A stretch of 64,000 nt of DNA from Umezawaea endophytica (GTDB lineage: Bacteria > Actinomycetota > Actinomycetes > Mycobacteriales > Pseudonocardiaceae): assembly GCF_025061645.1 (NCBI RefSeq), contig NZ_JANYMP010000005.1, positions 343,050 through 407,049 of the forward strand, given 5' to 3'. Shown in pieces: positions 10,561 through 53,837 of this stretch. Under the pieces are notes generated by a model. It was given only the letters and a program-made list of their open reading frames with translations. It was not told the origin of the DNA and did no database searches. Both the position numbers and the translations under genes were made by a program. Within the stretch, counting starts at the first letter, position 1. The number at the start of each line of letters is the position of its first letter.

Positions 10561-10571
10561 TACTGTCGATT

Positions 10572-10582
10572 TTGTAGCACAA
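10572..10582. promoter_or_regulatory. GntR operator candidate 2
   Basis: TTGTAGCACAA has the same TTGT-N3-ACAA arms as the site at 10550, exactly 22 bp away centre to centre. This is two helical turns, so two dimers could bind the same face of the DNA. Confidence 0.6.
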
Positions 10583-10618
10583 TCCTGGCGTGTATCGTCA
10601 TCACGGGTGGAGGCACGC

Positions 10619-29049: not shown

Positions 29050-29211
29050 CCGCGGCGGGCGACGGGGTATGCACCCATCCGGGTGGAGCGCGTTGACCTG
29101 CATGAAGAGGATCACCGGCGGTGATATGACTGGTGTCCGGTGCGATTGAGCAGCCAACCGTGGCCGACCGGTCGTCTCAGCCGACGTCATCAGGAGCGAC
29201 GGGGGGCCGCC

Positions 29212-30918: not shown

Positions 30919-31000
30919 CCTCGACACCGGTGCGCCCGTTCTCGTGCCACGACGGGAGAAGCGCGTCGACCTGGCGGGCGGGCCGTGGCACCCTGGAACG

Positions 31001-36129: not shown

Positions 36130-37923
36130 TCAGTCGGTCGGGATCGGCGTGCTGGTGAGCAGGTCGAAGACGAGACCGCTCGACCCCTCCCCCCGGCCTT
36201 CGCCCCGGTGGGCGGTCAACCAGACCACGGCCCGGCCGTCGCGCCAGCGGGTGCGGTTGTACGCGACGGACAGCCGGGTGCCCGCCTGCGGCACCTCCTC
36301 CTCGTTGACGAAGTACTGCTGCCCCCGGTCGAAACCCTCGCGCAGCAACGTGGTCCTCGGGCGGACGGGTTCGCCGTCGACCGCGCCGGGCATCGCCGCG
36401 CGCTGGAGCTGCACCTCGCGGTTGTCGCCGGGGACGCGCACGGGGATGAACGGGATCCAGTGCTCCGGGATGGTGTTCATCGCGGCGTAGGAGAGTGCGG
36501 CGCGCGGTGGGTCAGGGACGGGCGGCGTGGTCGTCCGGCGGCGGTAGGCCAGGACTTCCGCCGCCGCTTCGGCGCCCCGGTGCGGTTCGCCGGTGGGCAG
36601 GCGGACGGTCTGCTCGATGCCCCACACCAGGTTCGCGTTCTCGTCGCGGATCAGCAGGACCTCCTCCAGCGGCGGGCCGACGGCCACCTTCGGCACGCTC
36701 GGCGGGAGGAGCAGGTCGGTGTCCGCGGGCACGTCGTCGCTGCCGATGGTGTCGAGGGTGAACATCGACCAGCGCTGCCAGTCCTCGTCGGACCCGGCGC
36801 CCGCCGGGGTGATCCACTGCCGGTGGCCGAACACGTCGGTCACGACCAGGCCGCGGATCCTCGCGACGGTGCCCACCGGGAGGTCGCACGGCAACTGGTA
36901 CCAGTCGTTGCTGAACACCAGCGCGAACTCCAGGAACACCAGCCGCGCCAGGTCGGTGCTGTCCGGGCGGACGGCGGCGAAGTTGGTCTTCCCGTCCTCC
37001 AGCGCCCACCAGCGCGGCAGCGGCATCCCCGAGTAGCGGACCGGCGCCGGGAACACCGTGCGCGCCAGCGCGGGCTCCGGCGGTTTCGCGCCGCCGAGCG
37101 GCGGGCCGGGGTCCACGGAGAACGCGTGCCAGTCCAGCTCGCCGCCGGGGTACTCCCGCGCGGTCAGGGTCTTCTCCGCGCCGCCCGGCATCGACGCGGC
37201 CACCGAGAACCGGTGCTCCAGCCTGCGCGGGTCCCAGGTGGCGTCGCCGTCCGGGTCCGCCTGCGTGACACCGGTCGGCTGGTCGATCAGCCCGTCGAAC
37301 CAGGCGACGAGCCGCTTGCCCGCGTTGACCAGCGGGGTGTGGTGCAGCAGCCGGATGGTGTCGATGCCGTCGTCGGCCTCACCGCCGCCCTTCACGTGCA
37401 GGTACAGCTCGTAGCCGTCCATGCGGCGGCCCGCGACCGCCTGCATCGTGGCCCACACCGCCGGGTTGGCGCGCTGCGTGACATCAGCCGCCGTGGGCAG
37501 CTTGATCGGGTACTTCTTCGCGTACTGCTCCTCGTACTTGCGCACGTGGCCGAGCAGCCCCACCTGGTCCAGCAGCTTGAACCACCGGTGGCCGATCGCC
37601 AGCCGCAGGTCGAAGCCGATCTTCTCGGCGCCGTAGGCGAACGTGAGCCGCCGCCGTTCCGCGACCGTCTCCAGTGGACGGTTGGTCGGCAGGTCCTCCG
37701 GCGGGCCGCCGAACGGCCGGAACCGGGTGGGCCGCGACCGCGCGACCGAGTACGTGGCGGTCACCGGCGAACCGCCGTCGGTGCCGTGGAACTCGCCGAG
37801 CTGCCACTGCCGGGTGAGCAGCCACAGCGGGTCCCGGACCTCCGCGCGCAGGGCGCGGTCGAACTCGGTGGTCCGCGGACGGCCCGCGAGCTGGTTCAGC
37901 GCCTGGGCACCGGGATCGGTCAT
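36130..37923 (-). CDS. Large conserved-looking protein of unknown function, operon gene 6
   Basis: 597 residues. ATG 37923 lies in an ATGA overlap with the preceding gene. I cannot assign a function. The N-terminal third has a distinctive EVRDPLWLLTRQWQLGEFHG stretch, followed by TDGGSPVTATY; I remember similar strings in uncharacterised proteins of other bacteria but no role. The rest alternates beta-rich segments (FLEFALVFSNDWYQLPCDLP, ARIRGLVVTDVFGHRQWI) and loops rich in Pro and Gly. No signal peptide, membrane helix, or nucleotide-binding motif is visible. The C-terminal part (NEEEVPQAGTRLSVAYNRTR) is also beta-rich. It is the last gene of a six-gene operon. Confidence 0.7.
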   Translation of the reverse strand: MTDPGAQALNQLAGRPRTTEFDRALRAEVRDPLWLLTRQWQLGEFHGTDGGSPVTATYSVARSRPTRFRPFGGPPEDLPTNRPLETVAERRRLTFAYGAEKIGFDLRLAIGHRWFKLLDQVGLLGHVRKYEEQYAKKYPIKLPTAADVTQRANPAVWATMQAVAGRRMDGYELYLHVKGGGEADDGIDTIRLLHHTPLVNAGKRLVAWFDGLIDQPTGVTQADPDGDATWDPRRLEHRFSVAASMPGGAEKTLTAREYPGGELDWHAFSVDPGPPLGGAKPPEPALARTVFPAPVRYSGMPLPRWWALEDGKTNFAAVRPDSTDLARLVFLEFALVFSNDWYQLPCDLPVGTVARIRGLVVTDVFGHRQWITPAGAGSDEDWQRWSMFTLDTIGSDDVPADTDLLLPPSVPKVAVGPPLEEVLLIRDENANLVWGIEQTVRLPTGEPHRGAEAAAEVLAYRRRTTTPPVPDPPRAALSYAAMNTIPEHWIPFIPVRVPGDNREVQLQRAAMPGAVDGEPVRPRTTLLREGFDRGQQYFVNEEEVPQAGTRLSVAYNRTRWRDGRAVVWLTAHRGEGRGEGSSGLVFDLLTSTPIPTD

Positions 37924-40900
37924 CGGTCGTCCTCCCAGTACGCCGCGGGCAGCAGGTGCGCGAGCGCCGTCGCGGCGAGGTGCGCCGGTTCGACCGCGCG
38001 GGTCTTCGCCATCTCGAACGTCTCCGTGATCGCGTCGAGCAGGTCGGTCGTCGCCCACGCCCCGCCCGCCACCCGGACCGGCGGCACGACCAGGAGCATC
38101 GCCTGCGGCGGTTCGGAGTCCGGTCCGTTGTGGTGCACGGCGATCCCGGTGGTCTCGCGCTCGGCGGGGATCACCTCGGTCCACTCGTCCAGCAGGAGCC
38201 CGCACTGCCGGTCGTCGTCCAGGTTCGACGCGTAGTGCGCGGTGAACAGCAGCCGGTCCTCACCGAGCTGGTCGGGCAGGCCGGGGTCGTTCGCGAACTC
38301 CAGCCCGAGCCAGTGGTCGTGCTGCACGAAGGGAAACTGGACCGGCGACAGCTCGGGTTGGTCCCGGTCGAACCCGCCGGTGCCGAGCAGCCCGTCCGGC
38401 CCGAGCAGCGCGTCGGAGAGCACCACCACCCGCTCCCACAGCCCCGGCACCTCCCGCACCCGCGCCATCCCGTGCAGCCAGTCGTCGATCGGGAAGTCCC
38501 GCGCGGGCTTGAGGTGCTTGACGAGGTCACCGCTGTCGGCCCGACCCTTGCGCCACTGCTGCATGACCGGTCCGGGCGGAGTGAACTCGGGCACCACCAG
38601 GACGTCCTCGCCGAGCAGCGCCTTGAGCGCGTCGGTACCCGCGCGGACCCTGTCCGGTCCGGGAGGCGCCTGGTCGTACGACTGGAGCGCGGTGTTCGCC
38701 GCGGCGCGCCGCGAGGTCAGCTCGTCCGCGAGCTTTCCCGCGCGGGTCAGCAGTTCCGCGCCGAACGCCACGGCGCGGTCCTGGAACGGGGTCAGGTCGA
38801 GGCCCTGCGGGTCGAGGTCGGCGGCAGGCAGCTTCGCGGCGACGTCCTTGAGCAGGTCGCTCAGGGTCTTCCGGTTCGTCCCCGCGAGCTGCTTGAGCCC
38901 GTCGACGTTGTTGGCGACCGAGTTCCGCAGCGAACGGACCCGCGTGCGCATCTTCGACGGGGTGTCGTCCCGCGGCTTCGGCCTGGTTGTGAGCAGCCGC
39001 TCGGCCTTCTCCAGCAACTGGAACCGCTGCGCGTTCGGCGTCGAGTTCGGCAGGTTCTCGTACTGGTCGAGCAGCGCGTTCGCCGCGGCGAGGGCCACCG
39101 CCATCCGGGCCGCCAGCACCGCCACCGCCGCCAGCAGGTCGGCGAACACCCCGCGCCGCCACTGCGCCAGCTCACCCCAGCCACTGCGGACCAGGCCGAA
39201 CCCGCTCGCGGCCACCGCGAGCTTCGCGTACCGGGTCAGGAACGCGTCGATCCCGTTGAGGACGGCGGTCCGCTTCGGCGGCGCGCCGTCGGGGTAGAGC
39301 GGCCGGAGGTCGTCCAGGTAGTCGTCCACGTCGTCGGCCAGGTCGGTCATCGACCCCAGCACGGCGAGCGGTCGGTTCTTCGGCAGCGACACGGCGTCGT
39401 CGGCGGCGCGGTTGACGGCGGCGGAACCCGCGGCGGGCACGAGGTCGCTCTGGCGCAGCGGCCGGGAGGTGGTCAGGAGCGTGCGCACGGCCGCGACCAG
39501 TGGGGACACCTCGAAGAACGTGACCTTCTTGGCGACGCGGGTGGTGTACTCGATGTGCAGCTCGAAGTCCGGCCTGGGCTTCTCGTCGTCGATGACGACG
39601 CCGAGGATCCGGTCGTCCAGGTCGGTCATCGCGGCCTGGTCCGCCGGGCGCAGCGCCCACAGCAGGTCGATCGGCGCGAGACCGGTCTCCGCCTGGGTGA
39701 CCACGCGGCTGTGCGGGTCGCCGTCCTCGTCGTGCCAGGTGACCAGCGCGGCCACGTTCGACGGCTTCGGCAGCACCGACGGCAGCCAGTGGTGGACGGC
39801 GGGCTCGGCCTGCGCCCGCGGCGCGTCGTCGTCATCGGGGTCGAGGTCGGGGGTGAGCTTCAGCGCCAGCCGGTGCGTGAGGGTGGTCCCGCTGCGCGGG
39901 GTCTCCACCACCGACGGCGCGGGCGGGAGCCCTTCCTTGGCGTAGGCGTCGAGCGCCGCCGACGCGCGCTCGGTGTTGCCCTGCAACGCCTGGTGGGCTC
40001 CCTCGGCCACCGAGACGTCCGCGACCGCGTCCACGGCGTTGCGCAGCGCGTCGACCTCCGCCCGGAGGTGCGCGACCTGGGCAGCGCTCGCCGGTGGCAG
40101 GTCGGTGAACCCGAACGGGTAGTCGTCCGGGTGGCCGGTGCCCGGCGGCGCACCGTCCCGCAGCGCGTTGGCGTGCCGGAGCAGCGCCAGCCCGTCGACC
40201 ACGTTTCGGGCCTCGACCTGCTCGATGCTCGTCGGCGCCGCCGGGTCGTCCGGCGCGAGCGCGGTGTCGTCGATCTTGTTGGCGCGCAACGGGAACTTCA
40301 GCCGCAGCCCGGCGATGAACCGGTCCAGCCCGGCGTCGCGGTCGTGCAGCCCGCGCTCGAAGCGGTAGCCGAGCAGCGCCCCGAGCGACTGGCCCTGGCG
40401 CATCCCGTCCGCGATGGTCAGCGCGAGCCGGACGCGCTCCGAGCTGAGGTTCACCGCGAACGCGGTGGCCTTCACCGGATCGGCGTTCGCCAGGTAGCCC
40501 GCCCGCAGCACGGCGGCGGTGCGCGCGTGGGCGGGTGACGGGGTGTGGACGTACCCGGCGTTGCCCCGGTCGTGCGGGATCGGGGCGGTGCCGAACACCG
40601 GTGTGAGGTCGGCGGGCACGGTGACCAGGTCGACCGGGTCGGTGTTCCTGGTGACGTGCTCCAGCCATCCGTAGGCGCCGAGGTGCAGGCCCCGCACCGG
40701 TTGCCCGGTGCCGTCGGGGCCGTACCGCATCTCGGCCAGCCGCTCGGTGACCAGCCCGAGCCGCCACGCGTCCAACCGGTACGACACGCAGTCGAGGTGC
40801 TCGGCGAACACCCGCTCCAGCTTCGCGGTGGGCAGTCCGGCCAGGATGGTCAGCGCCTGGTCCAGTTCCGGCGACGGCGCCAGCAGGACCGCCTGCCGCG

Positions 40901-42686
40901 CGAGCAGGTACAGCAGCGCGGAAGGCGGCACGTCGTCGGCGAAGCCGTGCTCGCCGCTGACCGTGGCCGGGTCGCTCTCGGCGAGCCAGGTCAGGTAGTC
41001 GCGGCCGTCGGTCGTGTACGGCCGGATCAGCCGCTCCTCGGACAGCGGCCGGTCGTCGACCACGGGCGTGGCCAGCGGGTGCGCCGGGTCGCCAAGCAGG
41101 TGGTGCTCGACCGAGGTCGGGTGCAGCGCCAGGATGTCGAGCAGGGTCTGGTGCGGGTCGGGGCCCGGCTCGTCGAGGTCGGCGACGTGCGCGAGCGCGG
41201 CGCGCCACTGCTGCGCCGCCGTGCGCAGCGCCGCGTCGAGCGCGGCCCGGTGCGTCGCGGCGGCCGGGAAGGCGAGCCGGGAGAACACGGTCGTCGGCAG
41301 GATCCCGTAGGGCTGGCGGCCGAACTTCACCGCGGGCAGCGGACCCCGGCCGGACGCGTTGGCGAGGAAGAACGACCGGGTCTGCTCGGCCTGGCCGACG
41401 GTCAGCAGCGACGGCAGGAAGTAGCCCGTCGTGGCGGGCCACAGGGCGGTGTGCGCGGCCCGCGCGTCCCGTCGGTCGGTGCCCTCCGCGTTCGGCACGC
41501 CCGCCAGCACGGCCGGGTCGAGCCCGAGCAGTTCGGCGAACCACTGGCCGTCGGTCTTGGTGGTCCAGTCGGTCGCCGCGGCGGCGAAACCGGCGGCCGT
41601 GGACAGCGCCGCGTCCGCCTCGGCCGTCGGGTCCTGGCCCGCGGACCGCTCCTCGGAGTTGTTGGTGGGCGTGCCCTGCGGCAGCAGGCTGAACCCGGCC
41701 GGGCTGCGCGACTGGTCGGTGAGCAGGGCGCCGAACGCGGTCGCGGCCTGCGCCGGCGTCGCCTGTTCGCGCAGGCCGAGCACGACGAGCCGGTCGACGC
41801 CGTGGCGGAAGGAGTCCTGCAACGGGATCCGCAGGCCCACGCCCGCCGTGACGGCCTCGTCGAAGCTGGTCAGCCAGCGCAGCGCGGGCGGCACGACCAG
41901 CGCGCCGGTGGTCTCGTCGATCCTGAGCTGGGTCGCGGACGGCTCGTTCGGGTCGGGGCTCACCGCCAGCCCCTGGCGCACGGGCTGACCCGTCTTCGAG
42001 AACACGACGGCGCCGCCGACGTACCCGGTCGCGGTGAACCGGTCGGGCAGCAGCGCGGCGGTGGCGGCCACGGTCCAGGACTGCGGCGCGACCTGCTCCG
42101 CGGCCAGGGTCGGCAGCACGAGGAACGCCACCACGACGGCGTCACCGGGAGCGCTCGGCGCACCGTCCACACCGGACGGACGCCGGGCCTTGACCGCGGC
42201 GGCCCTGGTCTGGTTCTGGCCGACCGCGGCGAGCAGCGCGACCTCGGCGTTCCGCAGCTTCGCGCGATCACCGTGCGCGCGCCACACGGCCGTCCAGTAC
42301 TCGACCGTCGGCTGCCGGTCGTTGGCGGCGACCGGCTGCGGGCTCACGACCACGAGCACGGCGGTGCCCGCGGGCACGCCGAGCGGGCGGTCGGCCGGGT
42401 TCGCGGGCCGGCGGCTTTGCAGCAACCACCCGGCACGCCCGGCCGGGATCCGGGCGATCAGCTCGTGCCAGGCGGCCCGCTCCCCCACCGGCGAGCCGCC
42501 GGAGGCCCACAGCGCGGCCCAGTACGCGTCCAGCGCGGCGAGTTCGGCACGGGTCGGGCGCGGCTCCAGCTTGGTCACCGACCACTCGTCGGGGAACACG
42601 CGGACCAGCAGCTCGGTCTGGGTGAAGCGGGTCTCGACCCGCACCGGGCCCAGCAGCACCGGGAAGTCAAGGCTGAGCGGGGGCAT
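37920..42686 (-). CDS. Very large protein of unknown function, operon gene 5
   Basis: 1588 residues. ATG 42686 lies 20 nt inside the end of the previous gene, with GGAGA 8 nt upstream. The N-terminal block (LDFPVLLGPVRVETRFTQ, LLVRVFPDEWSVTKLEPRPT, then AYWAALWASGG) looks like a conserved domain that I associate with uncharacterised bacterial proteins. The middle (residues 480-900) is largely helical; residues 1150-1380 contain long heptad-like helices (VAVLAARMAVALAAANALLDQ) that could form coiled coils. The C-terminal 220 residues return to beta structure (VQFPFVQHDHWLGLEF). There is no signal peptide, P-loop, or known catalytic motif. It is probably a structural or scaffold part of the complex made by this operon. 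Confidence 0.7.
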   Translation of the reverse strand: MPPLSLDFPVLLGPVRVETRFTQTELLVRVFPDEWSVTKLEPRPTRAELAALDAYWAALWASGGSPVGERAAWHELIARIPAGRAGWLLQSRRPANPADRPLGVPAGTAVLVVVSPQPVAANDRQPTVEYWTAVWRAHGDRAKLRNAEVALLAAVGQNQTRAAAVKARRPSGVDGAPSAPGDAVVVAFLVLPTLAAEQVAPQSWTVAATAALLPDRFTATGYVGGAVVFSKTGQPVRQGLAVSPDPNEPSATQLRIDETTGALVVPPALRWLTSFDEAVTAGVGLRIPLQDSFRHGVDRLVVLGLREQATPAQAATAFGALLTDQSRSPAGFSLLPQGTPTNNSEERSAGQDPTAEADAALSTAAGFAAAATDWTTKTDGQWFAELLGLDPAVLAGVPNAEGTDRRDARAAHTALWPATTGYFLPSLLTVGQAEQTRSFFLANASGRGPLPAVKFGRQPYGILPTTVFSRLAFPAAATHRAALDAALRTAAQQWRAALAHVADLDEPGPDPHQTLLDILALHPTSVEHHLLGDPAHPLATPVVDDRPLSEERLIRPYTTDGRDYLTWLAESDPATVSGEHGFADDVPPSALLYLLARQAVLLAPSPELDQALTILAGLPTAKLERVFAEHLDCVSYRLDAWRLGLVTERLAEMRYGPDGTGQPVRGLHLGAYGWLEHVTRNTDPVDLVTVPADLTPVFGTAPIPHDRGNAGYVHTPSPAHARTAAVLRAGYLANADPVKATAFAVNLSSERVRLALTIADGMRQGQSLGALLGYRFERGLHDRDAGLDRFIAGLRLKFPLRANKIDDTALAPDDPAAPTSIEQVEARNVVDGLALLRHANALRDGAPPGTGHPDDYPFGFTDLPPASAAQVAHLRAEVDALRNAVDAVADVSVAEGAHQALQGNTERASAALDAYAKEGLPPAPSVVETPRSGTTLTHRLALKLTPDLDPDDDDAPRAQAEPAVHHWLPSVLPKPSNVAALVTWHDEDGDPHSRVVTQAETGLAPIDLLWALRPADQAAMTDLDDRILGVVIDDEKPRPDFELHIEYTTRVAKKVTFFEVSPLVAAVRTLLTTSRPLRQSDLVPAAGSAAVNRAADDAVSLPKNRPLAVLGSMTDLADDVDDYLDDLRPLYPDGAPPKRTAVLNGIDAFLTRYAKLAVAASGFGLVRSGWGELAQWRRGVFADLLAAVAVLAARMAVALAAANALLDQYENLPNSTPNAQRFQLLEKAERLLTTRPKPRDDTPSKMRTRVRSLRNSVANNVDGLKQLAGTNRKTLSDLLKDVAAKLPAADLDPQGLDLTPFQDRAVAFGAELLTRAGKLADELTSRRAAANTALQSYDQAPPGPDRVRAGTDALKALLGEDVLVVPEFTPPGPVMQQWRKGRADSGDLVKHLKPARDFPIDDWLHGMARVREVPGLWERVVVLSDALLGPDGLLGTGGFDRDQPELSPVQFPFVQHDHWLGLEFANDPGLPDQLGEDRLLFTAHYASNLDDDRQCGLLLDEWTEVIPAERETTGIAVHHNGPDSEPPQAMLLVVPPVRVAGGAWATTDLLDAITETFEMAKTRAVEPAHLAATALAHLLPAAYWEDDR

Positions 42687-45600
42687 CCGGCACCATCTCC
42701 TGTGCGTGGACGGCGACCAGTACCGGGGCCTGGAAGAGGATGTAGGCGGCGTCCGCGGCGCTGACGTCCGGCGCCCACGCCGTGACCTGCACGTCGTCGG
42801 CGCGCTGCTCGTCCTTCTCCTGGTCGTCCTCGTCGTGGTTGAACGGGTCGAGCGAGACGGTGACACCGCCGTCGAAGCGGATGAAGCCGTGCCCGGCCGG
42901 GTCGACCCGGCCCCAGGACAGGTCGTTCCACACCTCGACCGGCGTCGGCCCGCCCGGCTGGTCCTCGTCGAGCCCGAACCTCGGGTCGCCGGGGCGTTCC
43001 TTCAGCACGAAGAACCAGCCGAGGTCGCCGCCCGTGCCGCGGGCGGTGTCGGCGTCCAGGTCGAAGCCGAGCAGGTAGATGTCCGGATCGGCCTTGGCCT
43101 CGTAGATGGGCAGCCGGACGAGCCTCCTCGGCGGGTCCTCGCCCGGTGGCAGCGCGGCGAGCGTCCGCTCACCGCTCTTGTCCGGCACGCCGGGCTGCCC
43201 CTTCTTGTCGGGCCACTCGGCCTTGTGCGCGTACACCGCCGCGGTCGGGTACTTGCGCAGCAGCTCGCCCCGGATCACCAGCACGAGCGTGACGGCGGGC
43301 GGCGGATCACCGGGTTTCGGCCTGGGGTTGGGGTTCTCGCCGAGCCGGGCGGCGGTGCCCCACTCGTGCAGCGGCGGGATGTCGTAGAGGCGTTCACGCC
43401 GCTGGTCCGCCGTCTCGTCCGGCCGGGCCGGTGCCGTGCGCGGGTCCCAGAACTGGCGGAACGGCGTGCCGCGCTGGTCGGTCGGGTAGTCCCGCCAGAG
43501 CAGCTCGCGGGCCATCTCGTGGTTGAGGCCGACCAGGTAGGACTCGATGAACCTGGCGTTGGGCTCCAGCAGGGTGATCGAGTTCGGCGGGAGCAGCCCG
43601 AGGTTGGGCACGAAGGTGTCCGTCGACATCTTCAGCAGCTCGGTGTACATCGGCACGTCGAACCTCGGGTAGGCCATCACCTCGGTCAGCTCGCCGCCCT
43701 TGGGCGCCAGCCGCGCGGGCAGGTCGACCGCCGCGACGATGTCGTCGAAGACCGTCGTGTTCGCGTCGAGACCGGTGACGACGACGGCGGTGGTGCTCGC
43801 GACGTCGAGCCGCGGCCGGTCGTCGGCGACGGCCGTGGTGCGCGGCGCCATCCTGCCGGGCACGACGAGTCCCGGCGGTGGCTCCAGTGGTGGGGCGGCG
43901 GCGACCTGCCGTTCGTCGATGCGGGCGACGAGCGTGTCCAGCGAGGTGCCCAGCGTCCTCATCAGCCTGCTGCCCGGCCGGGTGAGGCGGCGCATCGTGG
44001 GTGACACCGGGGCCGTCGCGACCCGGCTCCGCGACACCTTGAAGCCGACGGCGAACACCTCGCCGGACGCCGCCGAGGCCGTGGCGGCGGGACGGTCGAG
44101 CACCTTGGGGTGGGCGGGCGCGGTGATCGTCAGCGCCCGGCCGGACGGCAGCGGCTCCGCGTCGGCGACCTGCGCGGGACCGGTCCGGGGCTCGATGTGC
44201 TTGCCGTGCAGGACGTCGCCGACCTCCCTGGCGAGCTGGGCGGTCCTGATCCACGCGTTCGCCCGCCGCGTCTCGCCGAGCTGCTCCCAAGCGGCGGCCA
44301 TCAGCTCCTCCTGCCGCGCCTGGACCACCTTGGTGCCGAAGTGCGCGGCGATCCGGAAGCGCGGGTCGAGGTTGAGCCGGTGCACCCAGTTCCGGACCTC
44401 GGCGTCGGGCAGCGGCGTGCCCTCCGGTGTGCTCAGCAGCTTCGGCGTGAGCGCGTGCCACCGCCCGTACAGCGGCGGGGTGATCACCGGGTCGACCTCG
44501 CCCGCGAGGTCGGGTATCTGGGGCACCAGCGCGGTGTTGGCGGAGGCGGCCGTCTGGTGCTGGTAGGCCTCGGCGAGGTTGATCAGCCCGGCCAGCGCGC
44601 GCTGCCACTGGTTGGGGTACGGCGGGGCGGGCGGGTTCTGCGTCCCGTAGTAGTTGTCCCAGTCCTCGAACTGATCGATGACCTTGTCGGAGTCGGGGAG
44701 CTGGAGCGCTCCGCCGAGCCGCAGGACACCGTTCGGCTGCGTGGGTGTGGTGAGGCCGGGGAGGCCGAAACCGGGTGAGCGGTGCGCGTCCACGTCGCGT
44801 CGGCCCACCGGCTCCTTCGCCTCGACGGGCTTCAACAGCCGCACCAGGAACTCGAAGTCGCCCGCCGGGCTCGTGGTGAACTGCCAGCGGTGGTAGACCG
44901 GCAGCCTGCCGGGCGCGGGCACGCCCGAGACGCCCCAGCTCGGGGTGGTCGCCGCGATCTGCCCCGGCTCGATGCCGAGCCCGGCCCGCCTGCCGGTCTC
45001 GAACGCGGGCACCACGAACGCGTGGTAGGTGGTGGTGGGCTTGAGGTGCCGGGGGCACAGCAGCCGCGAGCAGGCGCTGTCCGGCGCGTCCCGCAGCACG
45101 GTGGCGAGGGTCGACAGCACTCCCCCCATGCCGCCGGGGGTCGCGTCGTCCACGTCGAGCCTGCCCGCCAGCGAACCGTTGACGTGGACGTGCGCGAACG
45201 CGCCCAGCTCCCCCGCGGGCGGCAACGCGTTCGGGGCCGTGACGGTGATGAACGGCAGCGGCCCGCCGCCCACCTCGCCCTCCTCGAACTCCGCGGGCCC
45301 CGCCCCGTCACCTGCGGCGAGCACGATCAGCGCGAGCCACGGGGCGAGCCGCCGGGTGGCGGCGTTCGGCGCGGCCGGGCTGTAGCGCCAGGCGAAGTCC
45401 TCCTCGTAGAACTCGACGTGCGCCAGGTAGTTCGGCTCGAAGTTGGTGGTGAACGGCGGCGGCTCCATCCGCGAGACGACCCTGGGGTCGATCCCGACGA
45501 CGTCGCCGGGGCCGTAGAGCTGCACCGGCTGTTCGACCAGCTTGTGCGGCGCCGGGCCCGTGCCCAGCGCGTCCCCGTTCAGCTCCAGCCGGACCTGGAC

Positions 45601-46829: not shown

Positions 46830-46851
46830 CGTCTGGTTCCTCCGACTCTGG

Positions 46852-49800
46852 TCATGGCAGGTACGTCTCCGCTGTCGGCGCGAGCAGTCCGGAGCCCGGT
46901 GCGGCGGGCCCGGTCAACGCCCGGCCGCCCACGACGAGCACGCGGCCGTCCGCGAGGTCCACCGCGGGGAAGTCCCACCGGCCGGTGGTCAGCGCGCCGG
47001 TCGCCGTCCAGGAGCCGGTGGCCGGGTCGAAGGCCACGACGTCCCGGAACCCGGCCGTCGCGCGCGGCCTGCCGACCCCACCGATCACGAGGGCGCCACG
47101 GGCCGTGCGGACGCACCGGTGCCCGCTGCGACCTCCGCCCGGCAGGTCGTCGACCCGCGTCCAAGCGCCGGTCGTCGGGTCGTACACCTCGACCGCGGCG
47201 AGGCTGTCGACGCGGTACGGGATGGCGGGCACGGCGTCGCCGCCCGTGACCAGCACCCGGCCGTCGGGCAGCAGCGTCGCCTGGTGGCCCTTGCGCGGCA
47301 CGGTGAGGCCGCCGGTCGGGGTCCACGTGCCCGTCGCGGGGTCGTACAGCTCGCAGGACGCGAGCGCGCGCTCCCCCTCGCCGGTCTGCACGGCGCCCCC
47401 GACGACCAGGACCTTCCCGGTGCCGAGCACGACGGCCGCGGGCCCGGTCCGCGCCTCGACCATCGGTCCGACGGCGGTCCAGGCCAGGGTGGCCGGGTCG
47501 AGCAGTTCGGCGGACGCGAGCGCGGCGCCCCGCGCGCTCGTACCACCCGCCACCAGCAGCTTCCGGTCCACGACCACGGCCGAGTGCCCGGAACGGGCGG
47601 TAGCGAGCCCGGCGGTCGGCGCGGACCAGGTCCCTGCCGCCGGGGCGAACACCTCGACACCCGCCAGCGCTCCGCCCGCGCCGTCGAGGCCGCCCGCGAC
47701 GACGACCCGCCCGTCGCCGAGCCTCGTCGTGGTGTGCCGCCGCCGGGCCGTCGCGAGCGCGGCGGTCGCGGTCGCCCAGGTGCGGGCGATCGGGTCGAAC
47801 ACCGCCGCGACGGCCACCGGCGCCCCGGTGGCGTCCACGCCACCCGCGACGAGCACCTGGCCGGTGGTCAGCCGCACCGCGTCGGCCTCCGCGACGGCGG
47901 CGGGCGGCGACCCCGCCGCCGACCAGACGCCCGGTTCGGCGAGCACACCGCCGAGCACCTCGGACTGGCGCAGGACGTGCACCTGCCCCGCCAGGGACGG
48001 ATCCGCGCGGATCCAGTCGGCCATGGCGTCCTCGGCCGTCGCCGCGCTGCGGAAGCTCGACGTCGTGGCGCTCGCGGTGGCGGGCGGGAACGCCTGGTGG
48101 TTGTTGCGCAGGTAGGCCACGACGTACCGGCCGCCGGTGACCCGCACGGTCTCGTTCGCGGGGAACGGCTGCCGCTGCCGGGCGTCCTGCCGCGACAGCG
48201 GTGACCGCGCCGTGCTGCTGCCCGTCAGGAGCTGCCCGAACACCGCGCGCGGCGGGGTGTAGAGGCGCGAGGCGCTCCGCACGGCCGTCACGCGCACGGC
48301 GGCGGGCTCCGACGGGGCCTCGCTGTCGATGACGTGCAGCTCGTAGCGGGCGCTGCGGCGCACCACGCGGGGCGAGGCGATGGCGCCGCCGGCGGCGACC
48401 AGCTCCAGTCCGGCGTCCTGGGTCTCGTAGGCCGGGCGGGACAGCTTGGCCGCGTCGTCCATGTCCTGGAACTGGGCCATGGCGAACTTGTCGCCGGTGA
48501 CGGACCGCGCGACCAGCCCGCTGTCCTGCGCGGGCGCGATGGTGAACCGCTTGCCATCGCTGGGGCGCTGCGCGCCGACCCGGTCGATCCGGACGTCGAG
48601 CGGGATGGCCCGCTGCTGGACGACCAGCGTGCCGAGCGGGTGCAGCACCAGGTCGTCGCCGGGCGGCAACCGGCGGAGGGTGACCATCGGGTTGAACCCG
48701 CCTGCGGGCAGCCGGGTCTGCCAGCCCTCGACCTTGCGGACCTCCGCCTCCAGCAGGGCGAGCACCGCGACCGGCGGCAGCGTGGTGGTGCGCTCCTCGC
48801 CCCAGGTGATGTCGAAGTCGGCGGAGATCTCGAAGAACAGCAGGGAGATGGACCCGCGTCCGTGCGCCCGCCATGGCGCGGGCCCCTCCAGGGTGAAGTC
48901 CAGGTCGATGCCGAACAGCCCGACGCCGAACGCCTTGAGCGAGACCCCGGCGGAGACGTGGACGACGAACGAGAACGGCGAGAACCGGAACAGCGCGTCG
49001 AAGCCGAGGTGGCCCTCGACCCCGAAGCCGCCGAAGCCGAGCCGCAGTTCGGCCTTCGCGCCGAACTGGACGGTGTTGCTGGTGACGGCGAAGTAGCCGG
49101 ACACCCGGATGAGCTGCCCCGGCGAGTTCAGGATGTCGACGGAGATCCGCGGCGGCACCGGGAACGGCAGCGGCGGCGGGGTGTACGCGGGGTGGAAGCC
49201 GCCGACGGACAGCACGAAGTCGGGGTTGTCCCCCCAGGCCACGAGCAGCCCCATCCCGCCCTCGATGGTCATGGTGAGGACGCGGGAGTCGAAGAGCCGC
49301 GCGAAGAACCAGAGCCTGGACCTGTCGACCTCCAGCGCGCCCACGAAGCTGACCCGCAGCACCAGCAGCGCGACGTCCTCGCTGGGCAGGAGGCATTCGA
49401 GCAGGCCGAGGACGGCGATGTTGCCCGGCGGGATCTCGACGACCACCCCGAGGGAGACGCTGACCAGGGTCGGTGTGCCCCAGCCGATCTTCGCCATCGG
49501 GCCGACGAGGAACGTGCCGTCGTCGGGCGGGAAGAACCTGCGCAGGTCGCTGAGGATGCGCGGCGCGTTGGCCACCACGTCCCGCGGGAACATGACCGAC
49601 TGGATCGACCCGGTGACGACCCCCTCGACCAGCGCGTCGAGGTCCATCCTGCGGTTGAGGCCGAGGATCCCGCCGACGCCGATCAGCTTGAACCCGAACC
49701 CGAGTTGGATGCCCGCCTGGCCGAACTCGGCGGTGAGCACGATCAGCAGCGAGAAGCCGCGGCTGCCGTCCGGCATCCGGGTGGAGATCAACCCGATCGC

Positions 49801-51429
49801 CTTGACGTCGATGAAACCCGCGAACTCCAGCTCCAGCGCGCCCGCGTACTCGCCCCGCGCCTCGTCGAACGACAGGAACCCGCCGCCCGCGACGATGCCC
49901 GCGTCGACGGCCAGCCCGACACCGGTCGGCGGCTTGAACCGGAACGCGAGGTCGGCCACGCCGAGGTTGCCGCCGCCCGCGGGGAAGGACAGGTCGGCGA
50001 CCACGCCGACCCGCTCGACGGCCGCGCTGATCGGGCCGAGCGCCGCCGTGAAGCCGCCGGAGACCTCGATCGGCACCCGGCCGTCCGCGCCGAGCGCCAC
50101 GCCGAGGTGCAGCGCGGTGATCTCGATCGGTCCCAGTTCCACGTGCAGCGGCAGTTCGAGGTCGAGCCCGCCGCTGCCCTCCAGCCTCAACCCGGTCGAC
50201 GGCGTCCAGGTCCCGGTGATCTCGAACGCCGACTCGATCCTCGCGCCGCCCGCGACCGTGCCGATGAAGCCGTCCGCCCCCGAGAGGTCGATCAGCACGT
50301 GCCCGCCGGACAGCTCGACCCGCGCGGACGGCTCCGCGGTGACGGTGCCGCCCGTGTCGGCGGTGGCCCGCAGGCCGAGGGCGAGGGCGAACCGGCCGAC
50401 CTCCAGCCGTGAGGCCCCGGTCTGGCCGATCAGCACGATGGGCGTGCCACCCCGCTCCGCGACCGCGCCCGCGGCCACGTCCAGCCCCAGCGAACCGGTC
50501 GGCGGTGCCAGCTCGACGTCGAACGGGGGCCGCACGCGGGCGTCCAGCCCCGCCTCGAACCGGGCCGCCACCGCGAGGGTCAGCTTCCACAGCGATCCGA
50601 GCGGGATGGTCACCTGGACGTCCCGCTGCGCGGGCACCCGCAGCCGCGCGGTGAGCGCGGGCGGGCTCGTGGCCGGGTCCACACTGAGCCGGAACAGGTA
50701 AGCCTCCAGCACCGGCGGCGCGCCGGGGGGCGTGAGGAGCACGAAGTCCATGTCCCGCCCGGCGAGCAGGGCGGAGACCCGCGGCCACAGCAGGGACCCG
50801 TCGAAGCCGGGTGTGCCGAACCCGAACGTGTCGCCCAGCCAGCGCGCGGGGTCGGTCAGGATGGTGAGGAAGCGGTCGACGTGCAGCCGCCTGCGCCGTC
50901 CGGGAATCGTGTCCGGGTCTTGCGGGTCGCTCACCGCGCTGTCGTCGACGATCCCGAGGAGCGTGAGCAGTTCGACGGCCGCGAGGCCCTTGCCCTCGAC
51001 GTAGGAGATCACCGCGAACTCGACGAGCCGCTGGGGCATCAGCGCCGCCTCGGCCAGCAGGCGGGTGCGCTGCGGCGCGGTCAGGCCGGTGGACCCGTTC
51101 ACGGCGGTGGTCAGCGCGGGCGCCAGCGCGTCGAGGGCGGTGAGGGTCTCCGTGACGCCGCGGAGCAGCGCCAGTCCTTCCTGGACGATCGCCGCGTCGT
51201 CGCCCGCGGCGATGGCCTGCGTGAGCCGCGTGATGATCGGCGCGGCGGCACCGACCTGCCTGGTGACGGTCGACAGCGCTTCGCCCGCCGCCCCGAGGCC
51301 CCCCGGCAGGCGGAACCCGAGTCCGGCGAAGAACGCGTCGCGCTTGTCCGCGGCGAGGTTCTGCTCCAGCGGCAGCAGGGCGTTCGCGATCTCCCTGGCC
51401 AGCAGCTCCAGGGTGCCCGCGCCGCTCAC
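46852..51429 (-). CDS. DUF6603-like beta-rich protein with C-terminal Kelch propeller, operon gene 2
   Basis: 1525 residues. GTG 51429 lies in a GTGA overlap with the subtilase gene. Residues 1-200 are helical. Residues about 300-1050 are a long series of amphipathic strands with Gly turns (LGFGFKLIGVGGILGLNRRM, then DLDALVEGVVTGSIQSVMFP, ILSDLRRFFPPDDGTFLVGP and MAKIGWGTPTLVSVSLGVVV) matching what I remember of DUF6603 proteins. Residues about 1230-1525 form a seven-bladed Kelch propeller built like the separate 380-residue gene product. There is no export signal. The alternating hydrophobic strands could line a lipid- or ligand-holding groove or form a fibre; this is inference only. Confidence 0.75.
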   Translation of the reverse strand: MSGAGTLELLAREIANALLPLEQNLAADKRDAFFAGLGFRLPGGLGAAGEALSTVTRQVGAAAPIITRLTQAIAAGDDAAIVQEGLALLRGVTETLTALDALAPALTTAVNGSTGLTAPQRTRLLAEAALMPQRLVEFAVISYVEGKGLAAVELLTLLGIVDDSAVSDPQDPDTIPGRRRRLHVDRFLTILTDPARWLGDTFGFGTPGFDGSLLWPRVSALLAGRDMDFVLLTPPGAPPVLEAYLFRLSVDPATSPPALTARLRVPAQRDVQVTIPLGSLWKLTLAVAARFEAGLDARVRPPFDVELAPPTGSLGLDVAAGAVAERGGTPIVLIGQTGASRLEVGRFALALGLRATADTGGTVTAEPSARVELSGGHVLIDLSGADGFIGTVAGGARIESAFEITGTWTPSTGLRLEGSGGLDLELPLHVELGPIEITALHLGVALGADGRVPIEVSGGFTAALGPISAAVERVGVVADLSFPAGGGNLGVADLAFRFKPPTGVGLAVDAGIVAGGGFLSFDEARGEYAGALELEFAGFIDVKAIGLISTRMPDGSRGFSLLIVLTAEFGQAGIQLGFGFKLIGVGGILGLNRRMDLDALVEGVVTGSIQSVMFPRDVVANAPRILSDLRRFFPPDDGTFLVGPMAKIGWGTPTLVSVSLGVVVEIPPGNIAVLGLLECLLPSEDVALLVLRVSFVGALEVDRSRLWFFARLFDSRVLTMTIEGGMGLLVAWGDNPDFVLSVGGFHPAYTPPPLPFPVPPRISVDILNSPGQLIRVSGYFAVTSNTVQFGAKAELRLGFGGFGVEGHLGFDALFRFSPFSFVVHVSAGVSLKAFGVGLFGIDLDFTLEGPAPWRAHGRGSISLLFFEISADFDITWGEERTTTLPPVAVLALLEAEVRKVEGWQTRLPAGGFNPMVTLRRLPPGDDLVLHPLGTLVVQQRAIPLDVRIDRVGAQRPSDGKRFTIAPAQDSGLVARSVTGDKFAMAQFQDMDDAAKLSRPAYETQDAGLELVAAGGAIASPRVVRRSARYELHVIDSEAPSEPAAVRVTAVRSASRLYTPPRAVFGQLLTGSSTARSPLSRQDARQRQPFPANETVRVTGGRYVVAYLRNNHQAFPPATASATTSSFRSAATAEDAMADWIRADPSLAGQVHVLRQSEVLGGVLAEPGVWSAAGSPPAAVAEADAVRLTTGQVLVAGGVDATGAPVAVAAVFDPIARTWATATAALATARRRHTTTRLGDGRVVVAGGLDGAGGALAGVEVFAPAAGTWSAPTAGLATARSGHSAVVVDRKLLVAGGTSARGAALASAELLDPATLAWTAVGPMVEARTGPAAVVLGTGKVLVVGGAVQTGEGERALASCELYDPATGTWTPTGGLTVPRKGHQATLLPDGRVLVTGGDAVPAIPYRVDSLAAVEVYDPTTGAWTRVDDLPGGGRSGHRCVRTARGALVIGGVGRPRATAGFRDVVAFDPATGSWTATGALTTGRWDFPAVDLADGRVLVVGGRALTGPAAPGSGLLAPTAETYLP

Positions 51430-53828
51430 CGGTCGGTCCCGTGCGCGAGCGCGGCCTCGTCGAGCCGGTCCAGGCTCGCGCCGGGCCACAGCTTGGCGAA
51501 GTCGGCGAACCGGGTGAGGTCGGCCTGCAGCCGTGGACCCGCGAACCGGTCCAGGACGGCGAGGAATCCCGAGACCAGCTCGGCGAGGTCGAGGCCGTCG
51601 ACCGCCTCGGGCAGCAGCGCGTCGTTCGGGGTGGGGCCGTGCAGCAGCCGCCGCACCACCTGCGGACCGCCGAGCCGCCGCCAGACCACGAGCACCCTGC
51701 GGTTGGTGTTGACCAGGCGCAGCACCTCGTCCACGTGCTCGCTCACCAGCGCGGCGAAGAGCTGGAGACCCGGCCGGGGGCCGAACCGCCGCTGGAGGTC
51801 GGCGAGGCGGGACCGGAGGGTGTGCGGCGTCAGGCCGATCTCGTCGGGGGCGAACGCCAGCGGCCGCGAGCCCCCGCCGCCACTGGCGGCGACGGTGGTG
51901 GCGACCGGTATCCCCGCCAGCGCCGCCGCGGCGTCGACCTTGCCGGAACCCCACAGGTGGTTGCCCCGGATGCCGGTCGCGGGCTCGATCGGCGGCGGGA
52001 CCTCGGCGGCCGGGATGCCGTCGGTGCGGCAGCTCTTCTGGAGGTGCCCGCGGACCTGGTCGAAGGTCAGGTTCCGGTTCTTCTGGAACATGAGCGCCAC
52101 CAGCCCGGCCACGTGCGGCGTCGCCATGCTGGTGCCGGACTTGTCGACCACGAGCTGGTCGCAGCAGGACGAGTTGCTGTCCTTGTCGTCACGACCGCGC
52201 GGAGCGGCGACCGACACGCCGGGCGCGGCGACCGTCGGTTTGATCTCGCCCGCCGGGGCGACGGGCTGGTTCGGCACCCCGCGCGAGGAGAACACCGCGA
52301 GCGTCCCGTCGCCGTCGTCGTAGGCGGCGACGGTGATCGCGTTGCGCGAGGCGGCGGGCGAGATGATCGTGTTCAGCCGCCGCTTCTCGACCCGGTCGTC
52401 CTCCGTCGGCAGGCGGAACGTCGGGAAGTCGTCGTCGTTCTCGATCCGGAACCACGCGTTCCAGTCGGCGGCGACCGCGGTCGTGTTGGTGAACTCGAGC
52501 TGCCACACCCCGGAGCGGACCGCCGTGCTCGCGGGCACCGAGATCGTGATGTCGATCAGCTTCAGCGCCGGGTGCGCGGGGTGCGGCGTGGTGCTGGAGA
52601 AGACGTCCAGGGTCATCAGCCCGATCGGGTAGGTCCCCGCGGGCTGACCGGGAGCGCCGGGGGCGCCGGGCGGGATGGCGCCGGTCGTGACCGGACCGGG
52701 CCTCGCCGGGTTCACCGGCGCGGTGATCTCGACGGTCAGCGCCGCCGCGCTGGAGTACCAGACGGCGAGGCTATCGGCCTTCTCCGAGTTCTCCGGGACG
52801 TGGAAGGAGACGGTCGCCGAGCCGTTGGGCGCGACCGTCCCGCTCTCGTGCGTCTCGTCCCTGGCCTCGTTGCCCGCCGCCGCCACGATGGCGACGCCCG
52901 CGGGAGTGACCGCCGGGGCCGCGGGACGCAGGATCCCGTCGACGACGAGGTCGAGTTCGTCCCGGCCGTCGTGCGCCCCGAGGCTCCTGCCGAAGCTGCA
53001 GTTGATCACGACGGGTCGCGGGACCGGCGGGTTGCCCACCTTGTGCCGGTCCCCGGCCTGGGCGCACCACTGGAGGGCGTCCGCCTCGTTGTTGGTCGAC
53101 ACCCCGATCGCCTTCACCACGACGAGGTCCGCCTCCGGCGCCACGCCGGTGTACCGGCCGGGGGAACTGCACCGGTCGTCCTGGCTGCCGTCCCCGGCGG
53201 CGATGCCCGCGACGTGGGTGCCGTGGCCGACGGTGTCGACGCTGCCGAACGACGACCCGGCCTTCAGCGCGGGGTTGATGTGCTGCGGCAGGAAGAGCCG
53301 ACCGATCTGCTGGAAGCCCGTCGGCGGTGGCAGGCCGCCGTCCGACGCCTTCGCGCCCTGGTCCCACAGCTCCAGGATCCGGGTCGTCTTGTCGGCGTCG
53401 GTGTTCCGGAAGGACTCGTGGAAGACGTCGATCCCGGTGTCGATCACCGCGATGATCACGCCCGCGCCGCGTCCCGGCCACGGGGTGGTCGGCGGGACCT
53501 TCCACGGCACCCGCAGTTCCTCGACCGTGTTGTCCAGTGCGGGCCTCGACGGCGTCAGCAGCGCGACGGACTCGACCCCAGGCACCGCGTCGAGCTGTTC
53601 CAGGTCCGCCAGCGCGATGATGCCGGAGACCGTCCCGCCGCTGTCGTACCCGGTGTCCAGCCCTGCTCGCCGCAACGCGTCGACGTCACCCGAGTACCGC
53701 ACGAGGACGGTGACCCGCCTGCTCGTGACCTCCGACGCGCTGAGCCGGGGGTGATCACCCGCCGACGCGTAGCCGAGTTCGGTTCGCCACACCGCCATGG
53801 CGTGCTCCAACGCGGGTTCCAGCTTCAT
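51426..53828 (-). CDS. Cytoplasmic-looking S8 subtilase with helical C-terminal domain, operon gene 1
   Basis: 800 residues from ATG 53828, which has AGGGGA at a workable distance; ATG 53837 is an in-frame alternative whose ribosome site would touch it. The triad is complete: Asp near 130 (VIDTGIDVFH), His near 202 (GHGTHVAG), Ser near 567 (GTSMATPH), with Asn near 320 (AAAGNE). A beta-sandwich insertion of about 180 residues lies between Asn and Ser. The first 95 residues look like an inhibitor propeptide, but there is no signal peptide, unlike the protease at 2999-6151. Residues 660-800 are a helical extension. It heads the operon, so it may mature or activate the other products. Confidence 0.85.
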   Translation of the reverse strand: MKLEPALEHAMAVWRTELGYASAGDHPRLSASEVTSRRVTVLVRYSGDVDALRRAGLDTGYDSGGTVSGIIALADLEQLDAVPGVESVALLTPSRPALDNTVEELRVPWKVPPTTPWPGRGAGVIIAVIDTGIDVFHESFRNTDADKTTRILELWDQGAKASDGGLPPPTGFQQIGRLFLPQHINPALKAGSSFGSVDTVGHGTHVAGIAAGDGSQDDRCSSPGRYTGVAPEADLVVVKAIGVSTNNEADALQWCAQAGDRHKVGNPPVPRPVVINCSFGRSLGAHDGRDELDLVVDGILRPAAPAVTPAGVAIVAAAGNEARDETHESGTVAPNGSATVSFHVPENSEKADSLAVWYSSAAALTVEITAPVNPARPGPVTTGAIPPGAPGAPGQPAGTYPIGLMTLDVFSSTTPHPAHPALKLIDITISVPASTAVRSGVWQLEFTNTTAVAADWNAWFRIENDDDFPTFRLPTEDDRVEKRRLNTIISPAASRNAITVAAYDDGDGTLAVFSSRGVPNQPVAPAGEIKPTVAAPGVSVAAPRGRDDKDSNSSCCDQLVVDKSGTSMATPHVAGLVALMFQKNRNLTFDQVRGHLQKSCRTDGIPAAEVPPPIEPATGIRGNHLWGSGKVDAAAALAGIPVATTVAASGGGGSRPLAFAPDEIGLTPHTLRSRLADLQRRFGPRPGLQLFAALVSEHVDEVLRLVNTNRRVLVVWRRLGGPQVVRRLLHGPTPNDALLPEAVDGLDLAELVSGFLAVLDRFAGPRLQADLTRFADFAKLWPGASLDRLDEAALAHGTDR

Positions 53829-53837
53829 CGCAGTCAT

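What the first reader, a model, noticed from the sequence alone, without database searches (positions are those of the whole stretch)
36130..53837. Six-gene, 17.7-kb operon of giant proteins with no known function
Five of the six genes overlap the one upstream: 51426-51429, 45687-45690, 42667-42686 and 37920-37923 are stop-start overlaps, and 46852/46829 are 22 nt apart. The products are a subtilase without signal peptide, a DUF6603-like protein fused to a Kelch propeller, a separate Kelch propeller and three proteins of 1007, 1588 and 597 residues that I cannot assign. None shows an export signal, P-loop or transport motif. Overlaps over this length imply one assembly made in fixed ratios, perhaps matured by the protease. 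This is the strongest candidate in the window for an undescribed system.
Basis: partly seen in the sequence, partly recalled or inferred. Interest (0 to 1): 0.88.

Follow-up and report, generated by a model that had tools for sequence, protein, structure and literature searches.

The report
Giant-protein platform with exchangeable digestive enzyme
A block of four large proteins of unknown function is kept together in very different bacteria and in salt-loving archaea, while the digestive enzyme encoded beside it is repeatedly exchanged for an unrelated one, which points to an undescribed machine that works with interchangeable enzymes.

Summary
The operon is real: six genes, four overlapping junctions, one 22-nt gap. 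Four genes form the conserved unit: B (DUF6603), D, E, F stand in that order in 31 of 34 loci tabulated, from Actinomycetota, Bacteroidota, Gemmatimonadota, Proteobacteria and Halobacteria. D, E, F have no significant Pfam, NCBIfam or PADLOC match. The subtilase is one of several enzymes at that place: subtilase, trypsin-like, M64, PhoD-like and, weakly supported, wall hydrolases. Most subtilase and trypsin-like versions share a C-terminal domain. On the core tree 17 labelled loci need at least 9 enzyme changes. In nine close loci B's N-terminal part follows the enzyme type (3 of 5000 label shuffles reach the observed excess); B's body does not (916 of 5000): B's N-terminus is the likely docking site, though linkage is not excluded. 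I infer a fixed platform with an exchangeable enzyme, probably a conflict system; outward or inward action is undecided. Maturation by the protease is not supported: it is replaced or absent elsewhere. DUF6603 occurs in no paper of the library searched.

The parts
51426..53837 (-). Gene A: subtilase (S8), the exchangeable enzyme; the Asp, His, Asn and Ser motifs of the active site start at residues 131, 204, 320 and 568
   Evidence: PF00082 E 5.5e-39; motif scan; nearest solved structures are clostridial germination proteases, best E 7.3e-23
51429..51824 (-). C-terminal domain (CTD, about 125 aa) of A, shared with trypsin-like proteins in the same place at other loci
   Evidence: HMM from 4 seeds matches 9 of 22 slot proteins, the 4 seeds included; all 9 are S8 or trypsin-like by Pfam, motif or similarity; alignments A8, A9
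46852..51429 (-). Gene B: N-terminal part, DUF6603, C-terminal Kelch propeller (1525 aa)
   Evidence: PF20248 E 3.5e-129 at residues 428-993; Kelch families between about 1189 and 1503
50140..51429 (-). N-terminal part of B (residues 1-430) that follows the type of enzyme: proposed docking site
   Evidence: over residues 1-355 same-type pairs exceed different-type pairs by 22.7 points of identity, against 1.2 points over residues 430-1000; DNA similarity with L017 (81%) stops at 50357
48451..50148 (-). DUF6603 domain (residues 428-993): long run of strands in a low-confidence model
   Evidence: AlphaFold2 model with mean pLDDT 47
46900..47865 (-). Kelch propeller fused to B
45687..46829 (-). 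Gene C: separate Kelch propeller (380 aa), variable part
   Evidence: not found beside the core of L021 and of the other distant loci
42667..45690 (-). Gene D: core protein of unknown fold (1007 aa)
   Evidence: no Pfam, NCBIfam, PADLOC or PHROGs hit at the limits used; present in the same order in 31 of 34 loci
37920..42686 (-). Gene E: core protein (1588 aa), fused to F in L054
   Evidence: no hit; one weak PHROG match, E 0.022; order
36130..37923 (-). Gene F: core protein (597 aa); 22 invariant columns in 24 sequences
   Evidence: no Pfam, PADLOC or PHROGs hit, one insignificant NCBIfam match E 0.039

Best explanation
The body of B, with D, E and F, makes up the fixed part of one large protein platform. 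One degradative enzyme (or a tandem pair) is made with it and docks on the N-terminal part of B; most subtilase and trypsin-like enzymes also carry a common C-terminal domain that takes part in the docking or in holding the enzyme silent. Beta-propellers (Kelch here, FG-GAP or WD40 elsewhere) are add-on recognition parts. Evolution exchanges the enzyme together with its docking part of B and keeps the platform. The most likely use, I think, is conflict with other cells: the platform brings a protein- or envelope-degrading enzyme to a target. Shown: conserved core and order, co-inheritance, repeated exchange of the enzyme, shared CTD, covariation of B's N-terminus with the enzyme. Inferred: that the four proteins form one particle, that B's N-terminus binds the enzyme, that the target is another cell.
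For: Core order B>D>E>F in 31 of 34 loci; 2 of the 3 exceptions are cut by contig ends, 1 is a lone F. Pairwise distances of B, D, E, F correlate 0.86-0.96 over 30 loci, 0 of 2000 permutations as high (shared descent of the hosts contributes). In 396 Actinomycetota genomes F is in 10 and DUF6603 in 12; 8 genomes have both. Recognisable degradative enzyme beside the core in 22 of 34 loci with a readable flank (a partly different set of 34, listed in the full report): S8 6 upstream and 1 downstream, trypsin-like 5, M64 4, PhoD-like 4, lysozyme-like 1, SLT/M23 with peptidoglycan-binding 1. At least 9 changes among 17 labelled loci and 4 within the clade of 7 nearest. CTD: in 100 genomes of the family found in 4, and all 4 also have F: G058, G964, G980 by search, the own genome from the window. 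B's N-terminus covaries with the enzyme. Window and L017 are 81% identical in DNA over 14 kb and yet carry S8 and trypsin-like enzymes.
Against: No physical evidence for a complex. Linkage alone could carry B's N-terminus along with A when the stretch recombines; covariation does not prove binding. No immunity, lysis or export gene in the window's operon and no signal peptide seen: how it would leave the cell is unexplained. In 5 of 34 loci nothing enzyme-like is adjacent, in 5 the neighbour is unassigned, in 1 it is a WD40 propeller, in 1 a divergent oxidase-like gene. The M64, PhoD-like, lysozyme-like and SLT/M23 versions and the downstream S8 of L066 lack the CTD. PhoD-like and several trypsin-like assignments lie below Pfam's cut-off. 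Two genomes with F (G363, G402, F on contigs of 3.2 and 4.9 kb) gave no DUF6603 match. One genome (G743) has a trypsin-like protein with the CTD but no F. Haloarchaea have no peptidoglycan (recalled).
Confidence: 0.45

Rival explanations
1. Inward-acting immune or suicide device: the platform stays in the producer, senses infection or damage (propellers, D, E, F) and releases the protease, phosphatase or wall hydrolase to stop or lyse the own cell.
For: No signal peptide seen and no immunity gene in the window's operon. Patchy: F in 10 of 396 Actinomycetota and 6 of 247 Bacteroidota genomes, the centre genome included in each; 14 plasmid records with F. PADLOC's generic subtilase model matches A, E 3.8e-22. 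Five of six Bacteroidota D proteins carry an internal hydrophobic hairpin, which fits a membrane-bound complex.
Against: B to F match no PADLOC model up to E 1. Of ten further proteins scanned (six flank proteins of L041, L042, L043, L063, two window genes at 29140-33550, two slot enzymes) one, the AbiEii of L041, is a clear defence gene and two give weak matches (E 1e-4 and 7.5e-4). No Walker A motif in the six proteins. Peptidoglycan-binding domains make little sense in the cytosol.
Confidence: 0.25
2. Accessory of contractile injection systems: the platform and its enzyme are loaded on, or work with, an eCIS encoded elsewhere in the genome.
For: Sheath family PF17482 rings in 13 of 21 core-bearing genomes searched, with two places in the own genome that stand in CIS-like clusters by eye. 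PMC12923769 (passages) gives about 2.2% for eCIS among sequenced bacteria and archaea.
Against: 8 of 21 have no sheath match; none lies beside the core (nearest about 25 kb in G747 and 60 kb in G825, there single sheath-like genes). 3 of 14 control genomes ring, so prophages count too. No core-less relatives were searched, so lineage and genome size may explain the excess.
Confidence: 0.1
3. Cell-surface or extracellular degradation complex for feeding (cellulosome-like in logic).
For: The enzymes recognised on the core's strand are hydrolases of polymers or phosphate esters, or a lytic transglycosylase.
Against: No signal peptide by eye in the proteins printed for nine loci; one enzyme or a tandem pair per operon.
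Confidence: 0.1
4. Linkage without function: A merely neighbours an unrelated cluster and moves with it.
For: Covariation of B's N-terminus with A is also what linkage would give.
Against: S8 with CTD directly upstream of B in two phyla; 4-nt overlap in the window; genomes with the CTD have the core in 4 of 4 of the family sample and 2 of 3 of the Bacteroidota sample.
Confidence: 0.07

Closest known systems
Polymorphic toxin systems (PMC3482391; passages seen)
   Same: Fixed part with exchangeable effector; patchy spread
   Different: Here a whole gene plus the N-terminus of B is exchanged and the common domain is C-terminal; no small immunity gene in the window's operon; four large platform proteins; no known trafficking domain found
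Extracellular contractile injection systems
   Same: Cytosolic proteins without signal peptides and exchangeable cargo, in bacteria and haloarchaea (recalled; abstracts in the listings)
   Different: No sheath, tube, baseplate or AAA family in the core proteins; sheath genes lie elsewhere, in 13 of 21 genomes
Tc toxin complexes (recalled; nothing fetched)
   Same: Giant signal-less proteins, propeller, enzyme cargo
   Different: No Pfam or NCBIfam match of B, D, E, F to such components
Csp germination proteases of clostridia
   Same: A is nearest to them among solved structures (best E 7.3e-23)
   Different: A scores 124 bits against a cut-off of 1250 in the NCBIfam CspBA model; no other spore part in the operon
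Pfam DUF6603 (PF20248)
   Same: B matches the full model (432 bits, cut-off 27)
   Different: Function unknown; three genomes have DUF6603 beside other large proteins (L083-L085)

Membership tests
DUF6603 (PF20248) | Match over curated cut-off along the whole model | tested here: met
   432.1 bits, model 1-501 of 502
Peptidase S8 | Asp, His, Ser motifs in order and match over cut-off | tested here: met
   134.6 bits, cut-off 21.8; motifs. Activity not testable here
Polymorphic toxin system | Adjacent small immunity gene | tested here: not met
   Window operon only: no further gene between or directly after the six; other loci not checked systematically
Polymorphic toxin system | Variable toxin domain at the C-terminus of one long protein | tested here: not met
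   Whole gene plus B N-terminus varies; the CTD is the common part
Extracellular contractile injection system | Sheath, tube, baseplate and AAA genes in the cluster | tested here: not met
   No such Pfam family in the six proteins; the own genome's sheath genes lie on contigs C3 and C4, the window on C5
Known anti-phage defence system | Match of system proteins to PADLOC models | tested here: inconclusive
   Only A matches, to generic subtilase and IetS protease models; B to F none. No phage assay possible
Tc toxin complex | TcA, TcB, TcC families | tested here: not met
   No such match in B, D, E, F
Phage or prophage structural module | Homologues in phage collections | tested here: not met
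   Three pattern scans of IMG/VR with F, B and E confirmed no relative (two or three short patterns each); 1 of 50,697 phage records matches F, an unannotated contig labelled UNVERIFIED
Bridge-like lipid transfer or AsmA-type proteins (recalled idea) | Repeating beta-groove fold | tested here: inconclusive
   DUF6603 model has long strands but mean pLDDT 47; Foldseek query TM at most 0.12 in the 50 rows shown

The most novel reading that the evidence does not exclude
An undescribed class of molecular machine, shared by bacteria and archaea: a four-protein carrier (B body, D, E, F) that takes up one of many unrelated degradative enzymes through a dedicated adaptor at the N-terminus of B, with enzyme and adaptor exchanged as a cassette, and that delivers the enzyme to other cells.
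Probability: 0.35. Interest if true: 0.93.

Novelty: categorically new. Interest (0 to 1): 0.82.

Why it matters
It would be a widespread machine (five bacterial and archaeal phyla among the loci seen) with no named core part except a domain of unknown function, and it comes with a built-in experiment: nature has exchanged its enzyme many times and kept the rest, so a docking site can be read from the breakpoint. If it delivers enzymes to cells it adds a class of delivery device; if it acts inward it adds a class of immunity. Either way D, E, F and DUF6603 become testable.

Tried and rejected
Structure: two AlphaFold2 jobs with 6-row alignments. B residues 1-1150 gave mean pLDDT 47, pTM 0.30; D gave pLDDT 31, unusable. 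Foldseek against PDB and viral models gave beta-barrels, apolipoprotein B and tail fibres at query TM of at most 0.12: not used as evidence. PDB sequence profiles: D none, F and E one hit each at E about 0.1, B only helical bundles from E 0.015. Profile comparisons D-F, D-E, E-F: no homology. Viral origin: rejected. Defence-island context: not seen in the six flank proteins scanned, a small sample. Slot proteins of L062 and L097 against PDB: nothing. Papers: eight searches. DUF6603 alone 0 papers; DUF6603, Kelch, subtilase combinations 1 unrelated; eCIS, PhoD, haloarchaea 1; protease families with giant proteins 0; M64, S8, PhoD, Kelch 0; swappable effectors 8, all listed; lamin tail in archaea, 8 listed of 1,962; eCIS cargo loading, 6 listed of 29. 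No listed title or abstract start describes this operon. Only passages were seen of PMC3482391, PMC11297309 and PMC12923769. The clade count was not printed and was rerun; a blastn returned nothing (cause not looked into) and was rerun from stored sequence.
Full report
Observation. The six genes are present as described, all on the - strand of a contig of an 11.0-Mb actinomycete genome (GC of the region 72-78%). Lengths, starts and stops were checked, junctions were read and codon-position GC supports all six. Four junctions overlap and one is a 22-nt gap with a GGAGG. Pfam gives subtilase for A, DUF6603 plus Kelch for B and Kelch for C; D, E and F have no hit in Pfam or PADLOC up to E 1, and in NCBIfam only F has an insignificant one (E 0.039).

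The unit is four genes. A search with D in the genome collection returned five loci, one from a Saprospiraceae (Bacteroidota) genome, and B, D, E and F recurred in order in all five. F was then searched in plasmids (14 records: Streptomyces 6, and one each of Nocardia, Rhizobium, Paraburkholderia, Gemmatirosa and four haloarchaea), phages (one unannotated contig), 396 Actinomycetota genomes (10 with F) and 247 Bacteroidota genomes (6 with F, the centre genome among them). Of the 14 plasmid records 11 were opened; two further Streptomyces longwoodensis plasmids and one of Halalkalicoccus were not, nor the second place in the Natrinema record. Profiles of B, D, E, F were run over 34 loci: 31 show B>D>E>F on one strand, in one of them (L045) with B cut by the contig end; L055 and L056 are cut by contig ends; L039 has F alone near IS5 transposases. 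Left out before this count: L048 (the same locus as L018) and four short contig pieces with parts of F (L058-L061). These loci were found by D or F, so the statement is that where D or F is, the rest is too. The independent test is DUF6603: 12 of 396 Actinomycetota genomes have it, 8 of them among the 10 with F. Of the four with DUF6603 only, one is a short contig with D (L086) and three (L083-L085) have DUF6603 beside other large proteins, a second kind of cluster. The two with F only (G363, G402) have F on contigs of 3.2 and 4.9 kb and no DUF6603 match in the genome; they stand against a strict rule. In L054 E and F are one open frame. Distances of the four proteins correlate at 0.86-0.96 in 30 loci; host descent contributes to that.

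The enzyme place. Directly upstream of B stands a different protein in different loci. I could read the flank in 34 loci: 29 of the 34 above (L039, L045, L051, L055, L056 dropped) plus G964, G980, G420, G300 and G456. A recognisable degradative enzyme stands on the core's strand in 22: S8 upstream in the window, L020, L046, G925, G747, G980 and downstream in L066; trypsin-like, in four loci as a tandem pair or a double protein, in L017, L047, L040, L064, G964; M64 in L018, L019, L057, G420; PhoD-like in L041, L043, G046, L052; lysozyme-like in L050; transglycosylase and M23 pieces with peptidoglycan-binding domains in L053. Five loci have an unassigned neighbour (L021, L062, L065, G931, G300), one a WD40 propeller (L054), one a divergent LodA-like gene (G456), five nothing adjacent (L042, L044, L063, G794, G825). 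The assignments are not equally strong. S8 in the window, G925, G747 and L066 and M64 in all four pass Pfam's cut-off; L020 and L046 rest on similarity and motifs, G980 and G964 on motifs by eye and the CTD. Of the PhoD-like ones only L041 passes (40.5 bits against 27; G046 and L052 score 21.0 and 23.6, L043 is placed by its 320-bit similarity to the G046 protein). Of the trypsin-like ones L064 passes and the others rest on GDSG motifs and mutual similarity. L050 has no Pfam hit and rests on the spacing of the T4-lysozyme catalytic residues (recalled) and E 0.18. The SLT hit is just below its cut-off, the M23 hits further below, the peptidoglycan-binding hits above. L064's second protein lacks the GDSG motif, and the downstream S8 of L066 lacks the motif patterns used. 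No base rate of such enzymes beside random genes was measured.

Exchange. On a tree of the concatenated core, 17 loci labelled S8, S1, M64 or PhoD need at least 9 changes; 300 shuffles of the labels gave 6 to 11 (125 of 300 gave 9 or fewer), so the enzyme is nearly independent of core descent. The tree joins two long branches (L053, L054) and used the simple model; without L053 the count is again 9. Within the seven nearest loci at least 4 changes are needed. The window and Saccharothrix L017 share 81% DNA identity over 36156-50357, from F into B, and then the similarity stops: the window has a subtilase there, L017 a trypsin-like pair.

Docking. First, S8 and trypsin-like enzymes share a C-terminal domain of about 125 residues to which Pfam gave no match; an HMM from four seeds matched 9 of 22 slot proteins, including those of Gemmatirosa and Paraburkholderia, and later the S8 proteins of two Bacteroidota. 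In 100 genomes of the own family the domain occurs in 4 and all 4 have the core; in 298 genomes of the order, sampled separately, there is one strong match (the own genome) and three marginal ones at E 2.7e-4 to 7.6e-4 that I did not follow; in 247 Bacteroidota it occurs in 3, two with the core and one (G743) a lone trypsin-like protein in a genome without F. M64, PhoD-like, lysozyme-like and SLT/M23 versions and the S8 of L066 lack it. Second, and more telling, B's N-terminal part follows the enzyme. In nine loci of the clade (window, L046, L020, G980; L017, G964, L047; L018, L019), pairs with the same enzyme type are 22.7 points more alike over residues 1-355 than pairs with different types (3 of 5000 label shuffles reach this), while over residues 430-1000 the difference is 1.2 points (916 of 5000). 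The loci are related, so the shuffle count is a guide, not a probability. Window B is 48% and 43% identical to the S8-type B of L020 and G980 in the N-terminus but only 29% to that of L017, although the body is 81% identical to L017 and 75% and 74% to L020 and G980. So enzyme and B N-terminus move as one cassette. Outside this clade the trend is weaker: G925 (S8) has 27-34% to the S8 group and 18-22% to the trypsin group, but G747 (S8) is nearest to G794, which has no adjacent enzyme, and the trypsin-type L040 shows no preference. Binding is the simplest reading; mere linkage is not excluded.

Other parts. Propellers recur in different guises: Kelch fused to B and free (window and close relatives), FG-GAP on D (L043), WD40 beside the core (L042 by annotation; L054); lamin-tail domains stand on F in two haloarchaea. 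In the proteins printed for nine loci no signal peptide was seen by eye. Five of six Bacteroidota D proteins examined carry an internal hydrophobic double stretch, read as a two-helix hairpin (mean hydropathy 2.7-3.3 over 19 residues), which the window's D lacks (maximum 1.67). DUF6603 has a beta-type hydrophobic periodicity (moment 1.33 and 1.08 at 170 degrees against 0.61 and 0.68 at 100 degrees in residues 240-430 and 430-900) and a low-confidence model of long strands.

Function. A fixed core with an exchangeable degradative enzyme, spread patchily and also on plasmids across bacteria and archaea, is the logic of conflict systems. Outward action is favoured by the envelope-directed members (peptidoglycan-binding, transglycosylase, lysozyme-like), inward action by the lack of signal peptides and immunity gene and by the hairpin. 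I put outward somewhat ahead. In the PADLOC scan ten proteins were examined: six from flanks of L041, L042, L043 and L063, two genes of the window at 29140-33550, and two slot enzymes; the AbiEii of L041 is the one clear defence gene, with two weak matches besides. A contractile-sheath gene is present in 13 of 21 core-bearing genomes searched, the own genome with two places in CIS-like clusters (by eye); eCIS are reported in about 2.2% of sequenced prokaryotes (PMC12923769, passage), but sheath genes also come from prophages (3 of 14 controls ring) and I could not search core-less relatives, so this is a lead only.

Novelty. DUF6603 occurs in no paper of the library, and in the listings of seven further searches no title or abstract start describes the operon; two of these listed only part of their hits, and most subscription papers and all preprints are outside the library. 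Parts of the logic are known from polymorphic toxins and eCIS, but defining features of both were tested in the window and not met, so I do not file it there. Because no core part was assigned to a known system I rate it categorically new, with the caution that its function is inferred.

Noticed in passing
L021, L096, L097, L098, L099 (D proteins): Internal hydrophobic hairpin in 5 of 6 Bacteroidota D proteins examined (not L100), absent from the window's D.
   Followed up: partly
L083, L084, L085: Second kind of DUF6603 cluster with other large proteins; weak metallo-beta-lactamase-fold match upstream in L083.
   Followed up: partly
L089 7164-11066: LodA-like (lysine epsilon-oxidase) gene divergent from DUF6603.
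   Followed up: no
G743 / L129 9380-10792: Lone trypsin-like protein with the CTD in a genome without F, in a stretch that also holds recombinase-like and patatin-like ORFs by eye.
   Followed up: partly
21 genomes; own genome contigs C3 and C4: Contractile-sheath genes in 13 of 21 core-bearing genomes; two CIS-like clusters in the own genome. No control of core-less relatives.
   Followed up: partly
window 29140-33550: Two adjacent ORFs, the second starting with a stretch containing VQAGRIEGGLHLH; no PADLOC match up to E 0.001.
   Followed up: no
L046 about 9260-10800: D of G058 lies in two reading frames and its C-terminal half is in frame with E; indel or assembly error not distinguished.
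   Followed up: no
L063: Streptomyces plasmid core locus sits among several tyrosine recombinases and a CHAT-domain gene.
   Followed up: no
L039 19944-21749: F alone, 65.5% identical to the window's F, near IS5 transposases on a Streptomyces plasmid.
   Followed up: no
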